This document shows, piece by piece, positions 27,802 through 38,819 of a DNA stretch of 64,000 nucleotides. The DNA is from Solirubrobacteraceae bacterium (GTDB lineage Bacteria > Actinomycetota > Thermoleophilia > Solirubrobacterales > Solirubrobacteraceae): assembly GCA_030447275.1 (NCBI GenBank), contig JAUJPF010000008.1, positions 1 through 64,000 of the forward strand, read 5' to 3'. Under the pieces are notes generated by a model. The model was not told the origin of the DNA and ran no database searches. It worked only from the letters and a program-made list of their open reading frames with translations. Position 1 is the stretch's first letter. The number at the start of each line of letters is the position of its first letter. The position numbers and the translations under genes are program-made.

Positions 27802-28806
27802 GTGCCGAAGTTCCTCTTCCTGCTCGCCGCCGTCGCGTCCGCCCTCACCCTCGCCGCCTGCGGAGGCGACGACGCGGCGACGGCCTCGTCGTCTACTCCG
27901 GCCGCAACCAGGAGCTCGTCGGCGACCTGCTGAAGCGCTACCAGGACGACACCGGCGCGAAGCTCGAGATCCGGTACGGCGACTCCTCCGATCTCGCGGC
28001 GACCCTGCTCGAGGAGGGCGAGAACAGCCCGGCCGACGTCTTCCTCTCCCAGGACGCGGGCGCCCTCGGCGCCGTCCAGGCCAAGGGCCTCCTCGCGCCG
28101 CTCCCCCAGCCCGTGCTCGACGCGGTCGAGCCGCGCTTTCGCTCCGACCAGGGGCGCTGGGTCGGGCTGACCGGCCGCGCCCGCGTCATCGCCTACGACA
28201 AGCGCGAGCTGAAGCCGCGCGACCTGCCGCCCTCCGTCTACAACGTGCCCGACCCGGAATGGAAGGGCCGCGTCGGGTGGGCCCCGACCAACCCGTCGTT
28301 CGAGTCGTTCGTCACCGCGATGCGCAGGCTCGACGGCGAGCAGACCGCGCGGCAGTGGCTCCGCGCGATGCTCGAGAACGACGTCAAGGCGTACCCGAAC
28401 AACATCGCGGTCCGCGACGCGATCGCCAACGGCGAGATCGACATCGGCCTGATCAACCACTACTACGTCGCCGAGGCCGTGGCCGAGGAGGGCGAGGACT
28501 ACCCGGTCGGCGTCTTCTCCCCGCCCAACGGCGACGTCGGCGCGCTCGTCAACGTCTCGGGCGCCGCGATCCTCGCGGGCTCGAAGAAGGCGGGAGAGGC
28601 GCGCAAGCTCGTCGAGTACCTGCTCTCGAAGCAGGGGTCAGGAGTACTTCGCGAAGGTCACCAAGGAGTACCCGCTCGCGGCAGGCGTGCAGCCCGACCC
28701 GGCGCTCGCGCCGTTCGACGAGATCCAGTCGCCGGAGATCGACCTGGCCGACCTGGCCGGGGTGCAGGAGACGGTGAAGCTGCTCCAGGAGACGGAGGCG
28801 CTGTAG
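27802..28806 (+). pseudogene. ferric-iron ABC transporter substrate-binding lipoprotein, two frameshifts
   Basis: GTG 27802 starts a lipoprotein signal (FLFLLAAVASALTLAACGGD). The mature protein (GLVVYSGRNQELVGDLLKRY ...) continues in a second frame from about 27880 to 28637, and the end (QEYFAKVTKEYPLAAGVQPD ... LLQETEAL) returns to the first frame and stops at 28804-28806. A missing base near 27878 and an extra T near 28639 (CAGGGG-T-CAGGAG) explain this. The protein is of the FutA/FbpA type, which binds Fe3+ outside the membrane (YSGRN, INHYY). It is the first gene of a binding protein, permease, ATPase operon. Decay or sequence error cannot be separated here. Confidence 0.72.
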
Positions 28807-28905
28807 CCGCGGAGGCCGACCTCCGGCTGCTCGAGGCGCCCGCTCGCCGCGGCGCGCGCGCCGCTCGCGCTGCTCGTCGCCGGCGCGATCGTCGCGGCGT
28901 TCGCG

Positions 28906-30408
28906 GTGCTGCCGCTCGTCTACCTGGCGATCGTCGTCGTCGGCGAGCCCTCCGACGCCCGCGACGCGGTGTGGTCGCGCGAGGCGCTCGAGCTCATGCT
29001 GCGCTCGGTCGGCCTCGCGGCGGCGGTGACCGAGACCGCCGTCGCCGTCGCGGTGGCGATCGCGTGGCTGACCGTGCGCACCGACCTCCGGGGCCGCCGG
29101 ACGTGGGCGGTGCTGTGCGCGCTGCCGCTCGTCATCCCGAGCTACATCGGCGCCTACCTGATGGTCTCCGCGCTCGGCCCCAGCGGGCTCGTGCAGGACG
29201 CGCTCGGCGTCGGCAGCCTTCCCTCGATCTACGGCTTCGCGGGCGCGTGGCTCGTGCTCAGCGCGTTCACGTTCCCCTACGTCCTGCTCCCCGTCCAGTC
29301 GGTGCTGCGCGGGCTCGACCCGCAGCTCGAGGACGCCGCGCGCGGGCTCGGCCGCTCGCCGCGCCAGGTGTTCGTCTCCGTCGTCCTGCCCCAGCTCGTC
29401 CCGGCCATCGCCGCGGGCGCGCTGCTCGTCGCGCTCTACGTGCTGAGCGACTTCGGCGCCGTCTCGATCCTCCAGTTCGACTCGTTCACCCGCGTCATCT
29501 ACACGACCTACCGCTCGTCGTTCGAGCGCGAGGGCGCGGCGGCGCTGGCGTGTCTGCTCGTCGCCGTGACGCTGCTCGTGCTGTGGCTCGAGGGGCGCAC
29601 GCGCCGCCGCACGCGCGCCTACCACCGGATCGCGCCGGGGGCCCAGCGCCGCCCGGCCGTCGTGCCGCTCGGGCGCTGGCGCCTGCCGGCGCTCGCGCTC
29701 GTCGGCGGCGTCGTGCTGCTCGCGCTCGTCCTCCCGGTCGGCGTGCTCGGCTACTGGGCCACGAAGAGCGTCGCCGCCGACATCGACTGGGGCCTCGTCG
29801 CCTCGGCGGCAGGCGGGTCGCTGCTCGCGGCGGCGCTGGCCGCCGCAGTCGCGGCCGCGGCGGCGCTGCCGGTCGCGCTGCTCGCCGCCCGCCACCCGAG
29901 CCGCGCGTCCACCGTCCTCGAGCGCTTCTCGTTCGCCGGGCACGCGCTGCCGGGCATCGTCGTCGCGCTGGCGCTCGTCTTCCTCGGCACGCGCGCGTGG
30001 CCGGCGCTCTACCAGACGCTCGCGATGCTCGTGCTCGCCTACGTGGTGCTCTTCCTCCCCCAGGCGATCGGGTCGATCCGCGCGTCGCTGCTCCAGATCG
30101 ACCCGCACGTCGAGGAGGCCGCGCGCTCGCTCGGGCGCTCGCCGCTCGCGGTGCTGCGGACGATCACGGCGCCGCTCGCGCGCTCCGGCGTGCTCGCCGG
30201 GGCGGCGCTCGTCTTCCTCACCGCGGTCAAGGAGCTGCCGGCGACGCTCCTGCTGGCGCCGATAGGATTCGAGACCCTCGCCACCGAGATCTGGCGGCTG
30301 ACGAGCGCCAGCTTCTTCGAGCGAGGCGCGGTGCCGAGCCTCGTCCTCCTCGCCGTGTCCGCCGTCCCGCTCGCCCTGTTGACCTTCCGGGCCCACTTCG
30401 ATCAATGA
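28906..30408 (+). CDS. ferric-iron-type ABC transporter permease (duplicated membrane domains)
   Basis: About 500 aa or more with 12 predicted helices and two binding-protein-dependent transport domains in tandem, each with an EAA loop (QLEDAARGLGRSPRQVFVSV near 145 and HVEEAARSLGRSPLAVLRTI near 400). This is the FutB/SfuB/FbpB arrangement for Fe3+ uptake. The start is uncertain. The first standard codon in frame is GTG 28906, but coding-like sequence for the missing first half of helix 1 (PLAAARAPLALLVAGAIVAA) extends upstream to about 28840 without ATG/GTG/TTG, which suggests another frame break near the GC repeat at 28848-28862. The stop overlaps the ATPase start (ATGA). Confidence 0.82.
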   Translation: MLPLVYLAIVVVGEPSDARDAVWSREALELMLRSVGLAAAVTETAVAVAVAIAWLTVRTDLRGRRTWAVLCALPLVIPSYIGAYLMVSALGPSGLVQDALGVGSLPSIYGFAGAWLVLSAFTFPYVLLPVQSVLRGLDPQLEDAARGLGRSPRQVFVSVVLPQLVPAIAAGALLVALYVLSDFGAVSILQFDSFTRVIYTTYRSSFEREGAAALACLLVAVTLLVLWLEGRTRRRTRAYHRIAPGAQRRPAVVPLGRWRLPALALVGGVVLLALVLPVGVLGYWATKSVAADIDWGLVASAAGGSLLAAALAAAVAAAAALPVALLAARHPSRASTVLERFSFAGHALPGIVVALALVFLGTRAWPALYQTLAMLVLAYVVLFLPQAIGSIRASLLQIDPHVEEAARSLGRSPLAVLRTITAPLARSGVLAGAALVFLTAVKELPATLLLAPIGFETLATEIWRLTSASFFERGAVPSLVLLAVSAVPLALLTFRAHFDQ

Positions 30409-31454
30409 GCGCCATCCGGTCCATCGCCGTCCACAAGCACTTCGGCGGGTGCCGTGCCGTCGATGGCGTCACGCTCGACGTCGAGGAGGGCGAGGTCTGT
30501 GCGCTGCTCGGCCCGAGCGGCTGCGGCAAGACGACGATGCTGCGCCTGCTCGCCGGCTTCGAGCGCCCCGACTCCGGCTGCCTGATGGTCGGCGGCGAGA
30601 TCGTCGCCGGCGGGAAGACCTTCGTGTCGCCCGAGCGGCGCCGGATCGGGATGGTCTTCCAGGACTACGCCCTGTTCCCGCACATGACGGTCGAGGCGAA
30701 CGTCGCCTACGCGCTCGGGCGCCGCGCCGAGGGCGCGGCGGCGCGCGTGCGCGAGGTGCTCGAGCTGGTCGGCCTCGGCGACCTCGGGTCGCGCCAGCCG
30801 CACGAGCTGTCGGGCGGCCAGCAGCAGCGCGTCGCGCTCGCGCGCGCGCTCGCGGGGACGCCGAAGGTGGTGCTGCTCGACGAGCCGTTCAGCGGCCTCG
30901 ACGCCGCGCTGCGCGCACGCGTGCGCCAGGAGGTCCGCGCGATCCTGCTCGCGGCCGGCGTCACCGCGCTCTTCGTCACGCACGACCAGGAGGAGGCGCT
31001 GTCGCTCGCCGACCGCGTCGCGGTCATGCGCGACGGCCGCGTCGAGCAGGTCGGCACGCCGGAGGAGGTCTACGGCCGGCCCGCGTCGCGGTGGGTGGCC
31101 GAGTTCCTCGGCGAGGCCGACGTCCTCCCGGGAACGGTCGACGACGGCTGGGTCGACTGCGAGCTCGCGCGGGTGCGCGCCGAGGGCGTCGGCAGCGGCG
31201 ACGCCGAGGTGCTCGTGCGCCCGGAGTCGGTGTCGCTGTCGCTGGGCCCGGCGGCCGGCGGGCGCACGCAGGTCGAGGGCGTCGTCGTGGAGCGCGAGTT
31301 CTTCGGGCACGACCAGCTCGTCCACGTCGAGCTCCCCAGCGGGCGGCGGCTGCGGTCGCGCTCGCTCTCGCATCCGGTGTGGCACCCGGGCGACCGGGTC
31401 CGGGTGCAGCTCGACGGGCCCGTCAGCGTGTACGCGGCGGCTAGCCCTGCGTGA
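30405..31454 (+). CDS. ferric-iron-type ABC transporter ATP-binding protein
   Basis: A 349-aa ATPase that powers the permease upstream. Walker A GPSGCGKTT lies near residue 37, the Q-loop VFQDYALFPHM near 84, the signature LSGGQQQRVALARAL near 133, Walker B VVLLDEPFSGLDA near 155 and the switch His in VTHDQEEAL near 188. A C-terminal TOBE-type regulatory domain (about 240-349, VLVRPESVSLSL) matches FbpC/FutC proteins. ATG 30405 overlaps the permease stop. The last 14 nt overlap the convergent cupin gene. With the binding protein broken, the importer may lack its receptor. Confidence 0.9.
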   Translation: MSAIRSIAVHKHFGGCRAVDGVTLDVEEGEVCALLGPSGCGKTTMLRLLAGFERPDSGCLMVGGEIVAGGKTFVSPERRRIGMVFQDYALFPHMTVEANVAYALGRRAEGAAARVREVLELVGLGDLGSRQPHELSGGQQQRVALARALAGTPKVVLLDEPFSGLDAALRARVRQEVRAILLAAGVTALFVTHDQEEALSLADRVAVMRDGRVEQVGTPEEVYGRPASRWVAEFLGEADVLPGTVDDGWVDCELARVRAEGVGSGDAEVLVRPESVSLSLGPAAGGRTQVEGVVVEREFFGHDQLVHVELPSGRRLRSRSLSHPVWHPGDRVRVQLDGPVSVYAAASPA

Positions 31455-32123: not shown

Positions 32124-32198
32124 AGCCTACACGCGCGGCGCCCCGCTCCGGGACGGCAGGAGGGGCCACCAACAAATCTCAGCGCGACCCGCTAAGAT
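32124..32198. promoter_or_regulatory. divergent promoters: lipoprotein/cupin operon (-) and lon (+)
   Basis: TAGGCT at 32129-32124 on the minus strand is 9 nt from ATG 32114. On the plus strand TAAGAT at 32193-32198 precedes the lon start by 38 nt, which would give lon a leader of about 30 nt with AAAGG (32224-32228) as ribosome site. lon is thus one of the few heads here that looks leadered. No HspR/HAIR or CtsR-type heat-shock operator was recognised in the gap. Confidence 0.4.
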
Positions 32199-32236
32199 TG
32201 CGCGTGCAACTACGCCTCTCGCCAAAGGTCTCCCGC

Positions 32237-34526
32237 ATGCCCGACACGCTTCTCCTCGTTCCCCTCGACGACTCCGTCGTCTTCCCCACCATGGACGTCA
32301 CCCTCCCGGTCGACGGCGACGGCGAGGAGCGCGTGCTCCTCGTCCCGCGCCACGACGGCCAGTTCGCGTCGGTGGGCACGATCGCCAAGGTCGTCGAGAC
32401 CGTCCGCCTGCCCGGCGGCGCGCGCGGCGCGGCGCTCGACGGCCAGGCGCGCGGCGTCGTCGTCGACGCCGCCGAGCCCGACGGCCGCGGCCGCCTGCGC
32501 GTCGGCGTGACCGAGCACACCGACGCCGACCCGGCCGACGGACGCACGCGCGAGCTCGAGCGCGACCTCCGCGCCGTCTACGAGGAGATCCTCGACGAGC
32601 GCGGTGCGGATGAGAGGGTCGCCGCCTTCCTGCGCTCCATCGTCGAGCCCGGAGCGCTGGCCGACGCGTCCGGCTACGCCCCCGACCTGTCGTTCGCGCA
32701 GAAGCTCGAGCTGCTGGAGACGGTCGAGGTCACCGAGCGGCTGGGCAAGGCGCTCGAGATGCAGCGCGAGCGGCTCACCGCGCTGCAGGTCCGCCGCAAG
32801 ATCCGCGACGACGTCGAGTCGGGCGCGCAGAAGCAGCAGCGCGAGTACTTCCTGCGCAAGCAGATGGCGTCGATCCGCCGCGAGCTGGGCGAGGACGAGG
32901 GCTCGGTCACCGAGGACCTCCGCACGAAGATCGACGAGGCGGGGATGCCCGACGACGTGCGCGAGCAGGCCGAGCGCGAGCTGGCCCGGCTCGAGCGCAT
33001 GGGCGAGGGCGGCGGCGGCGAGGGCCAGATGCTCCGCACGTACCTCGAGTGGCTCGTCAGCCTGCCGTGGAGCGAGCGCTCCGACGAGGTCCTGGACCCG
33101 GTCCGGGCGCGCGAGGTCCTCGACGCCGACCACGCCGGCCTGGAGGACGTCAAGGACCGCATCGTCGAGTACATCGCCGTGCGGAAGCTGCGCACCGAGC
33201 GCGGCATCGAGGCCGACAAGAAGGCCGGGGCGATCCTCACCCTGATCGGCCCGCCCGGCACCGGCAAGACGTCGATCGGCGAGTCGATCGCGCGCGCCAC
33301 GGGCCGCGAGTTCGTCCGCATGTCGCTCGGCGGCGTCCGCGACGAGGCGGAGATCCGCGGCCACCGGCGCACGTACATCGGCGCGCTCCCGGGCCGCCTG
33401 GTGCGCGCGCTGCGCGACGCCGGGACGATGAACCCGGTGATCATGCTCGACGAGGTCGACAAGGTCGGCTCGGACTGGCGCGGCGACACGAGCTCGGCCC
33501 TGCTCGAGGTGCTCGACCCCGCGCAGAACCACTCGTTCCGCGACCACTACCTCGACGTCGAGCTCGACCTGTCCGAGGTCATGTTCATCGCCACGGCGAA
33601 CATGGCCGAGACGATCCCCGGCCCGCTGCTCGACCGCATGGAGGTCATCCGCTTCGACGGCTACACGGTCGAGGAGAAGGTCGCCATCGCCCGCGACTAC
33701 CTGGTCCCCCGCCAGCGCGAGCGCAACGGCCTGAACGAGGACGAGGTGACGATCGACGACGGCGTGCTGCGCACGGTCGTGCAGGAGTACACCCGCGAGG
33801 CGGGCGTGCGGAACCTCGAGCGCGAGCTCGGGACCGTCCTGCGCAAGGTGGCCACGCAGGTCGCCTCTCAGAAGCGGACGCCGCCGGTGCCCGTCGACCT
33901 CGCGATCGTGCGCGACGCGCTCGGCCGCCAGCGGTTCTTCCAGGAGGCCGCGATCCGCACGGCGGTGCCGGGCGTCGCGACCGGGCTGGCGTTCACGCCG
34001 GTGGGCGGCGACGTGCTGTTCATCGAGGCGAACGGGATGAACGGCACGGCCGGACTGACGCTGACCGGCCAGCTCGGCGACGTCATGAAGGAGTCGGCGC
34101 GCATCGCGCTCACCTACGTGCAGGCGCACGCGGGCGAGCTCGGCATCGACGACGACGCGTTCTCCGAGCGCGAGTTCCACGTCCACGTCCCGGCGGGCGC
34201 GATCCCCAAGGACGGCCCGAGCGCCGTTGGCTGTCACGATGACGACGGCCCTCGCCTCGCTGCTCACGAGCCGCCCCGTGAAGCACACGGTGGGCATGAC
34301 CGGCGAGGTCACGCTCCAGGGCCGCGTGCTCCCGATCGGCGGGCTCAAGCAGAAGGTCCTCGCGGCCCACGCCGCCGGGCTGACCGACGTGATCATCCCC
34401 GAGCGCAACCGCGCCGACCTCGACGACGTCCCCGCCGAGGTCCGCGACGAGATGACGTTCCACCCGGTGATGACCGTCGCCGAGGTGCTCGAGATCGCGC
34501 TCGAGCCCGTCCCCGCCCACGTGTAG
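32237..34526 (+). pseudogene. lon: ATP-dependent protease Lon, frame broken at the catalytic serine
   Basis: The gene encodes the whole of bacterial LonA: N-terminal substrate domain, coiled helical region (KQQREYFLRKQMASIRRELG), AAA+ module with Walker A GPPGTGKT near 338 and Walker B VIMLDEVDK near 400, and the protease domain. The serine of PKDGPSA is residue 662 (codon 34220). Right after it four extra bases (34227-34230) shift the frame. Removing them gives [12 protein letters not shown] and the Lys of GGLKQK, ending at 34526. As given, the frame runs to 34570 and lacks the Lys of the dyad. Lon degrades misfolded and regulatory proteins, so a null allele would be notable. A sequence error is equally possible. 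Confidence 0.85.
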
Positions 34527-34633: not shown

Positions 34634-34675
34634 ATGGACGCATGTGCGATTTCGCTTTCCGTGGCGAGGGGCAAT

Positions 34676-35506
34676 ATGCAGGGCGAGATGTGGCACGGAC
34701 GCCTCCTCCTCGCAGCGGTCGTCGCTGTCCTGAGCACCTTCACGGTCGCCGTTGCGGCCGACGCGGGTCAGGACCTCGTGGCCGCGCAGCTGCCCGACCT
34801 GGTGCAGGAGACGCCGCGCGACCTCGGCGTCGTCACGGCGACGACGGCGAAGGGCCCGCGCTTCCGCCTCGGGTTTCGCTCGGCGGTCCACAACAAGGGG
34901 ACCGGCCCGCTGCTGCTCGACGCGAGCCGCCCGGACACCGGGCAGCTCAACATGACGGCGAGCCAGGTCGTGCGCCACGACGACGGCCGCACGACGGTCC
35001 GCCCGGGCGTCGGCCAGCTGCGCTACACGAAGGCCGCCGGCCACACCCACTGGCACCTGCTCGGCTTCGAGGTCTACGAGCTGCGCAGCGTCGACGGCCG
35101 GCTCGCCCGGCCCAGCCAGAAGACCGGGTTCTGCATCGGCGACCGCTACGACGTCGACTTCTTCGCCGACTGGCCGAACGAGCCGCCCACGAGCATCTGG
35201 CGCCAGCAGTGCGGGCTCAACCGGCCCGAGCTGCTCCGGCTGCGCGGCGGCATGTCCGTCGGCTGGGGCGACGACTACGACCCGCAGCTCGAGGGCCAGT
35301 ACATCGACGTGACCGGACTGCCCGCAGGCCGCTACGACCTCGTCCACCGCGTCAACGTCGACAGCGCCCTGCTGGAGAGCGACTACACGAACAACGTCGC
35401 GTGCCGCGGCGTGAAGCTCTCCTGGCCGCGCGGAGCGGCGAAGCGCCCGTCCTTCCACAGCACCAAGTGCAGCACCCCTCAAACCCACACGGAGGTAGGT
35501 TCATGA
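34676..35506 (+). CDS. secreted lysyl-oxidase-like copper protein
   Basis: A 276-aa exported protein with a signal peptide (LLLAAVVAVLSTFTVAVAAD). The copper-binding triad H123-T-H125-W-H127 followed by LLGFEVYEL is the diagnostic lysyl oxidase pattern. Downstream MSVGWGDDYDPQLEGQYIDV and LPAGRYDLVHRVN match the conserved end of the domain, as does ESDYTNN. Four Cys residues could form disulfides. Eukaryotic members oxidise peptidyl lysine to allysine for cross-linking; bacterial roles are little known. ATG 34676 follows GAGGGG; ATG 34688 is an alternative. The stop overlaps the next start (ATGA), so it leads a secreted-protein operon. Confidence 0.8.
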   Translation: MQGEMWHGRLLLAAVVAVLSTFTVAVAADAGQDLVAAQLPDLVQETPRDLGVVTATTAKGPRFRLGFRSAVHNKGTGPLLLDASRPDTGQLNMTASQVVRHDDGRTTVRPGVGQLRYTKAAGHTHWHLLGFEVYELRSVDGRLARPSQKTGFCIGDRYDVDFFADWPNEPPTSIWRQQCGLNRPELLRLRGGMSVGWGDDYDPQLEGQYIDVTGLPAGRYDLVHRVNVDSALLESDYTNNVACRGVKLSWPRGAAKRPSFHSTKCSTPQTHTEVGS

Positions 35507-36063
35507 GCAGTTCTCTCAAGCGCCTCGTCGTCGGCACGGTCGCCGCGGCGTGCGTGCTCACCCCGGCGGCCGCCATGGCCGGCGGCAAGGCCGACAAGGT
35601 CCGCGCCCGCATGACGGGCGGCGGCCACGTCCTCGGCATGTCGCTGGGCGAGGTCGTGAAGGTCACGCACGGCTTCGCGCTGCACTGCCGCACGGCGACC
35701 GAGCCGCAGCGGCTCCAGATCAACTGGAGCGGCGGCAACTCGTTCCACCTCACGAAGCTGATCAGCTCGTCCTGCACCGAGAGCTCCCGGATCGATCAGG
35801 AGAACCCGGACGCGCCGATCGACACGTACAACGGCCAGGGCACCGGCCGCCTGAACTTCGGTGGCGGCCAGACCGACACCGGCACGGCGACGTGGCGGTT
35901 CGTCGACGGCGGCGAGCCCGGCGGCGGCAACGACCGCATCCGGCTCACGATCGTCGACAGCGCCGGCAAGACCGTCGTCAGCGTCGTGACGAGCTCCGGC
36001 GACTCCAAGCCGCTGACCAGCGGCAACCACCAGGCCCACCGCGGCACGGGCAGCAAGGCCTAG
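35503..36063 (+). CDS. secreted beta-rich protein of unknown function (MTGGG type)
   Basis: A 186-aa exported protein with a signal peptide (LKRLVVGTVAAACVLTPAAA). The mature part runs ARMTGGGHVLGMS, VTHGFALHCRTATEPQRLQI, NWSGGNSFHLTKL, TYNGQGTGRLNF and GNHQAH, with two Cys. This pattern resembles uncharacterised secreted proteins of bacteria with a 'MTGGG ... HGFxLHC ... GNHQAH' frame; I do not know a function for them. GGAGG at 35491-35495 is an ideal ribosome site for ATG 35503, which overlaps the end of the lysyl-oxidase-like gene. Co-expression with that enzyme suggests it might be a partner or substrate, though Lys residues are few. Confidence 0.65.
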   Translation: MSSSLKRLVVGTVAAACVLTPAAAMAGGKADKVRARMTGGGHVLGMSLGEVVKVTHGFALHCRTATEPQRLQINWSGGNSFHLTKLISSSCTESSRIDQENPDAPIDTYNGQGTGRLNFGGGQTDTGTATWRFVDGGEPGGGNDRIRLTIVDSAGKTVVSVVTSSGDSKPLTSGNHQAHRGTGSKA

Positions 36064-36067
36064 CCGC

Positions 36068-36793
36068 ATGAAGCTCCGGCTCCTCACCGTCCTGGTCGTC
36101 CTCGCGGCCGCGCTGTCAGCGGTGGTTCCCGCTGCCGCGTGGGCGACGGACGGTGGGGAGTCCGGCGACAACGCCTCGCGCGTCGAGCCGGACGACCCGG
36201 AGCCCATTCCCGACTTCTGGACCGAGGAGGAGCCGGCGTCCGGCTCCGGCGGCGGCGGCGACGACGCCCCGCGACCCTCGGGCGACACCTCCACCTCTCC
36301 GGGTGGGACCGCGCCTGGCTCCGGGACCGTGACGACCGGTCCCGGAGCCCAGGTGCCCACGTCTCCGACGCGCCCCGCGACGCGCCAGGCGGCGCCCGCC
36401 GAGGACGCGCCGGTGTGCGATCCGCCGGCGGGCCTGCGCCAGGCGCTGCGCTCGCTGCGCCGCGCGGTGCGCGGCCATGACCTCCTCGCGGCGAACCCGA
36501 GGCCGGTGTCGGTGCGCGTGGCCGCGTGCCTGCCAGGCACGTTCGAGCTTGCCGTCGTCGTCGCCGGCAGCGAAACCGTCCTGTGGCGCGGACGGCGCGA
36601 CCTGCGCACGACGCGCCCCGCGACGCTGCGGCTCACGATGACCCCTGCGGGCCGCCGCTTCGTGGCGCGGGTGCGCCGCAACGGCGGCGGCGTCGTGCGC
36701 ATGCGCCTGCGGGCGCGGCTGTACCCCGCCGCGGCGCGCCGCGCCCACGCGCCCGCGTCCTCGAGCGCCTCGACGAGCGCCTCGACGTCGTAG
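36068..36793 (+). CDS. secreted low-complexity protein of unknown function
   Basis: A 241-aa exported protein. Signal peptide (LRLLTVLVVLAAALSAVVPA), then an acidic and Pro/Gly/Thr-rich linker (about 30-115), then a compact basic domain with two Cys (VCDPPAGLRQALRSLRRAVR ... VAACLPGTFELAVVVAG) ending in RLRARLYP near residue 220. The last 20 residues (APASSSASTSAST) are antisense to the end of the DsbA-like gene and are unlikely to be part of the original protein. It starts 4 nt after the previous stop and completes the secreted operon. No known domain is recognised. Confidence 0.62.
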   Translation: MKLRLLTVLVVLAAALSAVVPAAAWATDGGESGDNASRVEPDDPEPIPDFWTEEEPASGSGGGGDDAPRPSGDTSTSPGGTAPGSGTVTTGPGAQVPTSPTRPATRQAAPAEDAPVCDPPAGLRQALRSLRRAVRGHDLLAANPRPVSVRVAACLPGTFELAVVVAGSETVLWRGRRDLRTTRPATLRLTMTPAGRRFVARVRRNGGGVVRMRLRARLYPAAARRAHAPASSSASTSASTS

Positions 36794-37260
36794 AACCCGC
36801 GGTGCCGCTCGCCGGCGATGAAGAACGCGGGCGTGCCGGTGACGCCGCTGGCCTCGCCGCTCGCGCGGTCCTCGGCCACGCGGTCGGCGGCCGCCTCGAG
36901 GTCGTGCTCGAACCGCCCGGCGTCGAGCCCGATGTCGCGTGCGTAGCCGATGAGGTCCGCGTCCTCGAGCGCATCCCGGGGCGCGGCGAAGAGCACGTCG
37001 TGCATCTCCCAGAAGAGGCCCTGCTGCGCCGCCGCCTCGGCGGCCTGCGCCGCCCGCTGCGCGTTCGGGTGCTTCGACGTGACGGGGAAGTGGCGGAAGA
37101 CGAGCCGCACGCGGCCGTCGAGACGGGCGAGCACGCGGTTGAGCGACGGGACCGCGTCGCGGCAGTACGGGCACTGGAAGTCGCCGTACTCCACGAGGTC
37201 GACGGTTCCCGTGCCGCGGACGTGGTCGCGCGACGGGTCGACCGGCGGGACGAGGCTCAC
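36736..37260 (-). CDS. DsbA-like thioredoxin-fold protein without a nearby stop codon
   Basis: The recognisable protein is about 175 aa: VDLVEYGDFQCPYCRDAVPS with the CPYC active site at residues 30-33, a helical insert, and VTGTPAFFIAG with the cis-Pro near 144. No signal peptide is seen. The DPSRDHVRG lead and this domain resemble the DsbA-like tail fused to some NhaA antiporters, and here the gene overlaps a CPA1 antiporter gene by GTGA (37257-37260). After residue 175 the frame stays open, antisense to two secreted-protein genes, until 35479. The end given is where the fold ends, not a stop codon. Confidence 0.72.
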
Positions 37261-38819
37261 GCCGGCACCATCCTGCGCGCGAGCCGCTCGAGCTCGAGGT
37301 CGATGTCGCGCTGCACGGCGTTCATCTGCGGCGTCGTGATCTCGCCCTCGTCGCGCAGCTGCGCCAGCCGGGCGCGCTCGATCTGGAGCAGCTCGATGCG
37401 CAGCCGCAGCCACGCGCCGGTGTCGGACTCGGGCTGCGGCACGCCGTCCGCGCACTCGCCCGCGAGCTGGTTGGCCCGCTGCGCGTAGAGCGCACGGCCG
37501 CGCTCGAGCGTCACGGCGTCGAACGCCTCGCCGGCGAGCGACATGCGCCCGATCTGCGCGAGCGCCGCCTCGATCGTCCGGAACCGGACCATCGCGTGGC
37601 GCCGCTGGTCGGGCGCCTCCTCGGGGAAGCGCATCGCGCGGATGAGCAGCGGCAGCGACAGCCCCTGGACGGTCAGCGTCACGACGATCACGACGACGGT
37701 CAGGAAGATGATCTCGTCGCGGCCCTCGACGCCCAGCGGGATCGCGAGCGCGACGGCGAGCGACACGGCCCCGCGCATGCCCGCCCAGCCGACGACCACG
37801 CGCTCGCGCCAGGGGATGTCGTCGCGCCCGCCGATGCGCTCGTCGAGCTCGAGCGTCGTGAACTGGTGCAGCATCCGCACCCCCATCACGACGAGCGAGA
37901 GGACGACGCCGGCGACCAGCAGCGTGCCGACCGTCCCCTCGCCGAGGTCGTCGAGCAGCGTGGGGAACTGGAGCCCGACGAGCACGAACAGCAGCGACTC
38001 GAGCAGGAAGACGAGGATCTCCCAGAACCCGAAGGCCTGGATCCGCGTCGCGGCGTCGGACAGGTCGTGGTCGTAGAAGCCGAGGTAGATGCCGCTCACG
38101 ACGGCGGCGAGGATGCCGGAGACCTCGAGCTGCTCGGCCCCGATGTAGAGCAGGTACGGCGTGAGCAGCGTCACCGTGATCTCGACGAGCGCGTCGTCGA
38201 GCCGCCGGCGCAGCCACGCGACCGCCCAACCGCCGGCGAGGCCCACGAGCGTCCCTCCGCCCGCGACGAGGAGGAGCTCGACGGCGGCGGCGCCGAGCGA
38301 GAACGTCCCGGCGACCGCCGCGGCGACCGCCACCCGCCACGCGGTCAGCGCGGTCGCGTCGTTGACGAGGTTCTCGCCCTCGACGAGGTTCACGATCCGC
38401 TCGGGCGCGCCCAGGCGCCGGAACACCGCGGTCGCGGCGACGAGGTCGGTCGGGGCGAGGACGGTGGCGAGCACGAACGCCGCCGTCCACGACAGCTCGT
38501 CGACCAGCGCGTGCGCGGCGACGGCGACCGCGACGATCGTCGCCGCCACGAGCACGACCGCGGCGAGCGCGATCGGCCGCACGTCGCGCAGCAGCCGCCG
38601 CGGCGAGGCCTGGTAGCCCGCCGCATGGACGAGCGGCGGGACGAAGACGAGGAAGACGACCTCCGGATCGAGCTCGATCTCCGGCAGCCCCGGCAGCGCG
38701 CCGAGCCCCAGCCCGCCGAGGACGAGGAAGATCGGGTACGGCAGCCCGAGCTGCCGGGCGAGCGAGACGAGCAGGACGATCGCGACGAGGAGCGCGAAGA
38801 GGAACTCGATCTCGCTCAC
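37257..38819 (-). CDS. Na+/H+ antiporter, CPA1 (NhaP-type)
   Basis: A 520-aa membrane protein with 12 hydrophobic helices followed by a cytosolic helical tail (about 410-520, ERGRALYAQRANQLAGEC). The transport core holds LAPTDLVAATAV (the ND/TD site, near residue 125), EGENLVNDATAL near 147 and GWAGMRGAVSLAVALAIP near 345. These residues bind Na+ and H+ in CPA1 exchangers. GTG 38819 is 6 nt behind TAGTCT, so the message is leaderless. The DsbA-like gene follows with a 4-nt overlap. The pair may serve pH or salt homeostasis with redox control. Confidence 0.9.
   Translation of the reverse strand: MSEIEFLFALLVAIVLLVSLARQLGLPYPIFLVLGGLGLGALPGLPEIELDPEVVFLVFVPPLVHAAGYQASPRRLLRDVRPIALAAVVLVAATIVAVAVAAHALVDELSWTAAFVLATVLAPTDLVAATAVFRRLGAPERIVNLVEGENLVNDATALTAWRVAVAAAVAGTFSLGAAAVELLLVAGGGTLVGLAGGWAVAWLRRRLDDALVEITVTLLTPYLLYIGAEQLEVSGILAAVVSGIYLGFYDHDLSDAATRIQAFGFWEILVFLLESLLFVLVGLQFPTLLDDLGEGTVGTLLVAGVVLSLVVMGVRMLHQFTTLELDERIGGRDDIPWRERVVVGWAGMRGAVSLAVALAIPLGVEGRDEIIFLTVVVIVVTLTVQGLSLPLLIRAMRFPEEAPDQRRHAMVRFRTIEAALAQIGRMSLAGEAFDAVTLERGRALYAQRANQLAGECADGVPQPESDTGAWLRLRIELLQIERARLAQLRDEGEITTPQMNAVQRDIDLELERLARRMVPA

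What the first reader, a model, noticed from the sequence alone, without database searches (positions are those of the whole stretch)
34676..36793. Operon of three secreted proteins led by a lysyl-oxidase-like copper enzyme
The HTHWH copper triad and the conserved YDxxLxGQYIDV end mark the lysyl oxidase fold. It is coupled by ATGA to a secreted 'MTGGG' protein and, 4 nt on, to a third exported protein with an acidic Gly/Thr/Pro linker and two Cys. Lysyl oxidase generates cross-linking aldehydes in animals; a bacterial wall or matrix cross-linking set would be new. The partners could be substrate, chaperone or scaffold.
Basis: partly seen in the sequence, partly recalled or inferred. Interest (0 to 1): 0.7.

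Follow-up and report, generated by a model that had tools for sequence, protein, structure and literature searches.

The report
Bacterial lysyl oxidase with secreted partner
A soil-type actinobacterium (order Solirubrobacterales) carries a secreted copper enzyme of the animal lysyl-oxidase family, a kind already known in bacteria, and its gene is joined to one small secreted protein of unknown role, a pairing found again in one other species of the genus and nowhere else that I looked.

Summary
Gene 1 (34676-35506) is a genuine lysyl oxidase (LOX) domain protein: Pfam PF01186 above cut-off (3e-11), human LOXL2 the only confident PDB match by sequence and by predicted fold. The 'three-gene set' is only partly supported. 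LOX and gene 2 overlap by ATGA here and in the one other genome of the genus, although the pair is inverted there. But of 67 named LOX loci in bacterial genomes only that one has gene 2. Gene 2 is a signal peptide plus a divergent post-COAP-1-like domain. Gene 3 is an orphan, absent from the sister species and 119 other genomes. Its mature part has no lysine, so it cannot be a lysyl-oxidase substrate, and its last 15 codons lie antisense to the conserved end of a DsbA-like gene. Bacterial and archaeal LOX are already published, one with measured activity. What is new is a genus-level coupling of LOX to a post-COAP-1-like protein. Cross-linking remains untested. Verdict: an ordinary member of a known family, with one modestly interesting lead.

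The parts
34664..34675 (+). purine-rich ribosome-binding-site-like stretch (GCGAGGGGCAAT) before the ATG at 34676; an upstream in-frame ATG at 34634 exists but is less likely
   Evidence: sequence; inference
34676..35506 (+). gene 1: secreted lysyl-oxidase-domain protein (276 aa from this ATG). Cu ligands His123, His125, His127; LTQ Lys149 (SQKTGFC) and Tyr201 (DDYDPQLEGQ)
   Evidence: PF01186 3e-11; LOXL2 phmmer 2.7e-7, profile 1.2e-15; five catalytic residues invariant in 38 sequences; AlphaFold2 pLDDT 86, Foldseek best hit hLOXL2 5ze3 E 4.5e-9
35490..35506 (+). junction: GGAGG ribosome-binding site inside the end of gene 1 and ATGA stop/start overlap (ATG at 35503, TGA 35504-35506)
   Evidence: same arrangement in the sister species (AAGGAGTACCTCATGA)
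35503..36063 (+). gene 2: secreted 186-aa protein, signal peptide plus divergent post-COAP-1-like domain (MTGGG ... DxGEPGxxD ... GNHQAHR)
   Evidence: sister orthologue 39% identical hits NCBIfam NF041523 6.5e-6, below its cut-off; profile-profile 96% with true post_COAP_1 domains
36068..36793 (+). gene 3: predicted secreted orphan, acidic Gly/Thr/Pro linker, Arg-rich C-terminal part, two Cys in the mature region, no Lys in the mature part; membership in the set not supported
   Evidence: no family; no relative in 120 other genomes; 0 Lys; 3' end antisense to DsbA-like C-terminus 36748-36771

Best explanation
Gene 1 is a Sec-exported LTQ-type copper amine oxidase of the lysyl oxidase family. 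Outside the cell it would load Cu at His123/125/127, form the lysine tyrosylquinone from Lys149 and Tyr201, and convert primary amines (peptide lysines or free amines) into aldehydes with release of NH3 and H2O2. Gene 2, a small secreted beta-rich domain of the post-COAP-1 type, is translated in fixed proportion to it through the ATGA overlap and most likely works with the enzyme as a partner that holds or targets it at the surface, or less likely as a substrate. Gene 3 happens to be co-transcribed and is not a core part. Shown by computation: the family, the intact catalytic residues, and the LOX-gene 2 coupling in two species. Inferred: export, activity, and what gene 2 does.
For: PF01186 over cut-off. 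LOXL2 is the only solved relative by sequence, with K653/Y689-type residues aligned, and by fold (E 4.5e-9, prob 1.00). Five catalytic residues invariant in 38 actinobacterial LOX sequences. A related archaeal LOX is an active, beta-aminopropionitrile-sensitive amine oxidase once refolded with Cu (PMC6452851). LOX-gene 2 coupling with ATGA overlap in two species that share the flanking lon and DsbA/antiporter/GGDEF genes, the pair inverted as a unit.
Against: Gene 2 is next to LOX in only two genomes, both incomplete MAGs. No other sampled LOX locus has it, and no other post-COAP-1 locus sampled has LOX within about 1.5 kb. No expression, export or activity data exist for these proteins. The gene 2 model is low confidence (pLDDT 42), so binding or targeting roles rest on family resemblance only.
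Confidence: 0.6

Rival explanations
1. Enzyme and substrate: LOX oxidises lysines of gene 2 protein (or of gene 2 and surface polymers), and the aldehydes cross-link an extracellular layer.
For: Mature gene 2 has 4.4% Lys, K/(K+R) 0.41, above all 21 background ORFs of the window (maximum 4.1% and 0.35); the sister orthologue has 5.8% and 0.50. Coupling would give fixed stoichiometry.
Against: A post-COAP-1-like domain far from any LOX (L090) is at least as lysine-rich (sequence), so lysine richness is a trait of some family members. Lysine positions are mostly not conserved between the two orthologues. Gene 3 has no lysine in its mature part. Most LOX-bearing genomes have no gene 2.
Confidence: 0.15
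2. LOX is a stand-alone broad-range secreted amine oxidase (amine or ammonia scavenging, H2O2 release, attack on amine antibiotics); gene 2 merely shares its transcript in this genus.
For: LOX neighbours differ from clade to clade. The archaeal LOX oxidises many primary amines including aminoglycosides and polymyxin (PMC6452851). LOX is in 64 of 151 genomes of the order whereas gene 2 is in 3 of 232.
Against: The ATGA overlap with its ribosome-binding site has been kept in two species whose LOX proteins are only about 41% identical and whose pair is inverted relative to the flanks, which is more than chance adjacency suggests.
Confidence: 0.25
3. The LOX domain is catalytically dead and used as a structural or adhesive beta domain.
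For: Weak fold similarity to CARDB beta domains (E about 0.1).
Against: All Cu ligands and both LTQ residues are invariant across 38 divergent homologues, which is hard to explain without catalysis.
Confidence: 0.03

Closest known systems
Lysyl oxidase family (Pfam PF01186; human LOXL2 structure 5ze3)
   Same: Catalytic domain, Cu-talon His triad, LTQ Lys and Tyr, secreted
   Different: Single short domain without SRCR or pro-domains; no collagen or elastin substrate known; lacks the extra first His of animals, as in other bacteria (PMC4448552)
Prokaryotic lysyl oxidases (Grau-Bove et al. 2015, PMC4448552; Haloterrigena turkmenica HTU-LOX, PMC6452851)
   Same: Simple architecture, signal peptide plus LOX domain, in Actinobacteria among others; catalytic residues kept
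   Different: Coupling to a post-COAP-1-like gene is not mentioned in the parts of those papers I read
post-COAP-1 domain (NCBIfam NF041523)
   Same: MTGGG start, DxGEPGxxD motif, GN.Q.H end; profile-profile 96%
   Different: Below the family cut-off (26.6 against 40 bits for the sister orthologue, no hit for the window protein); stand-alone domain instead of the C-terminal part of a larger protein

Membership tests
Lysyl oxidase (PF01186) | Profile match over the curated cut-off | tested here: met
   43.8 bits against 20.4
Lysyl oxidase (PF01186) | Copper-binding His triad | tested here: met
   His123, 125, 127 invariant in 38 sequences
Lysyl oxidase (PF01186) | Lys and Tyr that form LTQ | tested here: met
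   Lys149 and Tyr201 invariant, aligned to the LOXL2 residues
Lysyl oxidase (PF01186) | Fold of the catalytic domain | tested here: met
   AlphaFold2 pLDDT 86; Foldseek top hits are both chains of hLOXL2, E 4.5e-9 and 1.6e-8, prob 1.00, TM 0.48 by query length
Lysyl oxidase (PF01186) | Copper-dependent amine oxidase activity | not testable with these tools
   Needs purified protein
post-COAP-1 domain (NF041523), gene 2 | Profile match over the curated cut-off | tested here: not met
   Window protein no hit, sister orthologue 26.6 of 40 bits; hence called post-COAP-1-like, not a member
post-COAP-1 domain (NF041523), gene 2 | Homology by profile-profile comparison with accepted members | tested here: met
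   hhalign probability 96.4%, E 1.2e-9
   LOX + gene 2 in 2 genomes; gene 3 in 1

The most novel reading that the evidence does not exclude
A dedicated bacterial pair in which a secreted lysyl oxidase acts on, or is positioned by, a coupled lysine-rich post-COAP-1-like protein to build a covalently cross-linked extracellular layer: a prokaryotic counterpart of LOX and its matrix protein.
Probability: 0.12. Interest if true: 0.65.

Novelty: new member of a known kind. Interest (0 to 1): 0.3.

Why it matters
The native role of prokaryotic lysyl oxidases is unknown (PMC6452851 calls it cryptic; PMC4448552 leaves it open). A conserved translational coupling to one specific secreted protein gives a concrete candidate partner to test. 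If gene 2 protein is a substrate, it would be evidence for LOX-made cross-links in bacteria.

Tried and rejected
Genome-wide search with the window LOX alone in genome contigs found nothing; the alignment query worked. Pfam, NCBIfam and PDB sequence searches for gene 2 and gene 3 gave nothing significant apart from the sub-threshold post_COAP_1 match. The AlphaFold2 model of gene 2 from two sequences was too poor to search with (pLDDT 42). Lysine enrichment of gene 2 as proof of a substrate was rejected, because a lysine-rich relative (L090) lies away from LOX. A sister relation of the two LOX copies could not be decided: unresolved tree with long branches, clade not rejected, p-AU 0.31. No sigma-70-like promoter or terminator was found, which is uninformative in a 71-77% G+C window. 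A paper search for the post-COAP-1 term itself returned none.

Full report
Where it lies. The window is part of a 123-kb contig of a 97-contig metagenome-assembled genome, 78% complete. The order of genes is lon (+), LOX (+), gene 2 (+), gene 3 (+), then on the other strand a DsbA-like gene, a Na+/H+ antiporter and a GGDEF/EAL gene (the last three named from sequence motifs, not from a family search).

Gene 1 is a lysyl oxidase. Pfam PF01186 scores 43.8 bits against a cut-off of 20.4. phmmer finds LOXL2 (5ze3) as the only PDB match (2.7e-7), and a 38-sequence profile gives 1.2e-15. In these alignments SQKTGFC meets LOXL2's GHKASFC and DDYDPQLEGQYIDV meets its DMYRHDIDCQWVDI, that is, the LTQ lysine and tyrosine. 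His123, His125, His127, Lys149 and Tyr201 are invariant in all 38 actinobacterial sequences and in the ten nearest ones. The AlphaFold2 model (pLDDT 86) retrieves both hLOXL2 chains as the only matches at E <= 0.001.

It is not new as such. LOX genes were reported in five bacterial clades including Actinobacteria in 2015, mostly as short single-domain proteins with the catalytic residues kept (PMC4448552). An archaeal one was shown to be active, with broad amine range and beta-aminopropionitrile sensitivity, though its native role was called cryptic (PMC6452851). Here PF01186 is found in 64 of 151 genomes of the order, and 67 loci were fetched by name from Thermoleophilia, Lentzea, Saccharothrix, Pseudonocardia, Kutzneria and others.

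The LOX-gene 2 coupling is real but narrow. In G151 a LOX (about 41% identical) is followed by a gene 2 orthologue (39% identical) with the same ATGA overlap and a ribosome-binding site just before it (AAGGAGTACCTCATGA there, GGAGGTAGGTTCATGA here). The flanking lon and DsbA/antiporter/GGDEF genes are shared, but the LOX-gene 2 pair is inverted relative to them, so it has stayed together through a rearrangement. Gene 2-type proteins were found in only 3 of 232 genomes of the order and 6 of 399 of the class. Scanning every locus held, the only LOX loci with one are those two genomes. The neighbours of LOX in other clades are different and change from clade to clade.

What gene 2 is. It has a signal-peptide-like start and one compact domain with MTGGG, TxGxGTGxxN, DxGEPGxxD and GNHQAH motifs. 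The sister orthologue hits NCBIfam post_COAP_1 at 6.5e-6, below the family cut-off; relatives at the C-termini of larger secreted proteins in G169 do likewise. Profile-profile comparison with bona fide post_COAP_1 domains gives 96%. I therefore call it post-COAP-1-like. That domain is found mostly at the end of larger, apparently secreted proteins, is present in 19 of 299 genomes of the class, and none of the 30 loci fetched has LOX in its flanks.

Substrate or partner? Mature gene 2 is lysine-rich for this genome (4.4%, against at most 4.1% in 21 background ORFs; sister 5.8%), which would suit a substrate, whereas mature gene 3 has no lysine at all. Two facts weaken the substrate reading: lysine positions are mostly not shared by the two orthologues, and a post-COAP-1-like relative away from LOX is also very lysine-rich.

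Gene 3. No family, no relative in 120 other genomes including the sister species. Its codon-position G+C (0.76, 0.68, 0.92) is compatible with a low-complexity coding gene. Its final 15 codons (36748-36790) are antisense to the conserved C-terminus of the DsbA-like gene, whose stop, present in G151, is missing here. Gene 3 is best left out of the functional unit.

Conclusion. Best-supported mechanism: a secreted, LTQ-dependent copper amine oxidase made in fixed ratio with a small secreted post-COAP-1-like partner. The family, the catalytic residues and the coupling are shown by computation; export, activity, substrate and partner role are inferred. A wall or matrix cross-linking set is possible but unsupported.

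Noticed in passing
window 34215-34235 (lon, 32198-34526): The lon gene is frameshifted near [16 protein letters not shown] compared with G151: an assembly error or a real lesion.
   Followed up: partly
window about 28680 (ORF 28113-31454): The substrate-binding protein of an ABC-transporter operon appears to leave its frame after KLVEYLLSKQGSGV (reading), another likely indel in this genome.
   Followed up: no
window 36748-37400, - strand: DsbA-like gene has lost the stop codon seen in G151 and its frame stays open antisense through gene 3 and gene 2 to 35479.
   Followed up: partly
L063 2-1989 (Conexibacter sp. RYN_258, = L112): There LOX overlaps at its 3' end with a secreted S8 subtilase-like gene: a different LOX coupling in a relative.
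   Followed up: no
L078 3770-6576, L086 5040-8393, L087 9983-11152: In several genomes of another family of the order, LOX sits beside ResA/CcdA-type cytochrome c maturation or thioredoxin genes.
   Followed up: no
L088 4538-18038 (G022) and L164: Several LOX-domain genes clustered in one genome (three in about 14 kb in L088; a tandem pair in L164), some 400-770 aa long with extra domains.
   Followed up: no
L090-L093 (G169): Four post-COAP-1-like domains at the C-termini of larger secreted proteins in one genome, one of them very lysine-rich.
   Followed up: partly
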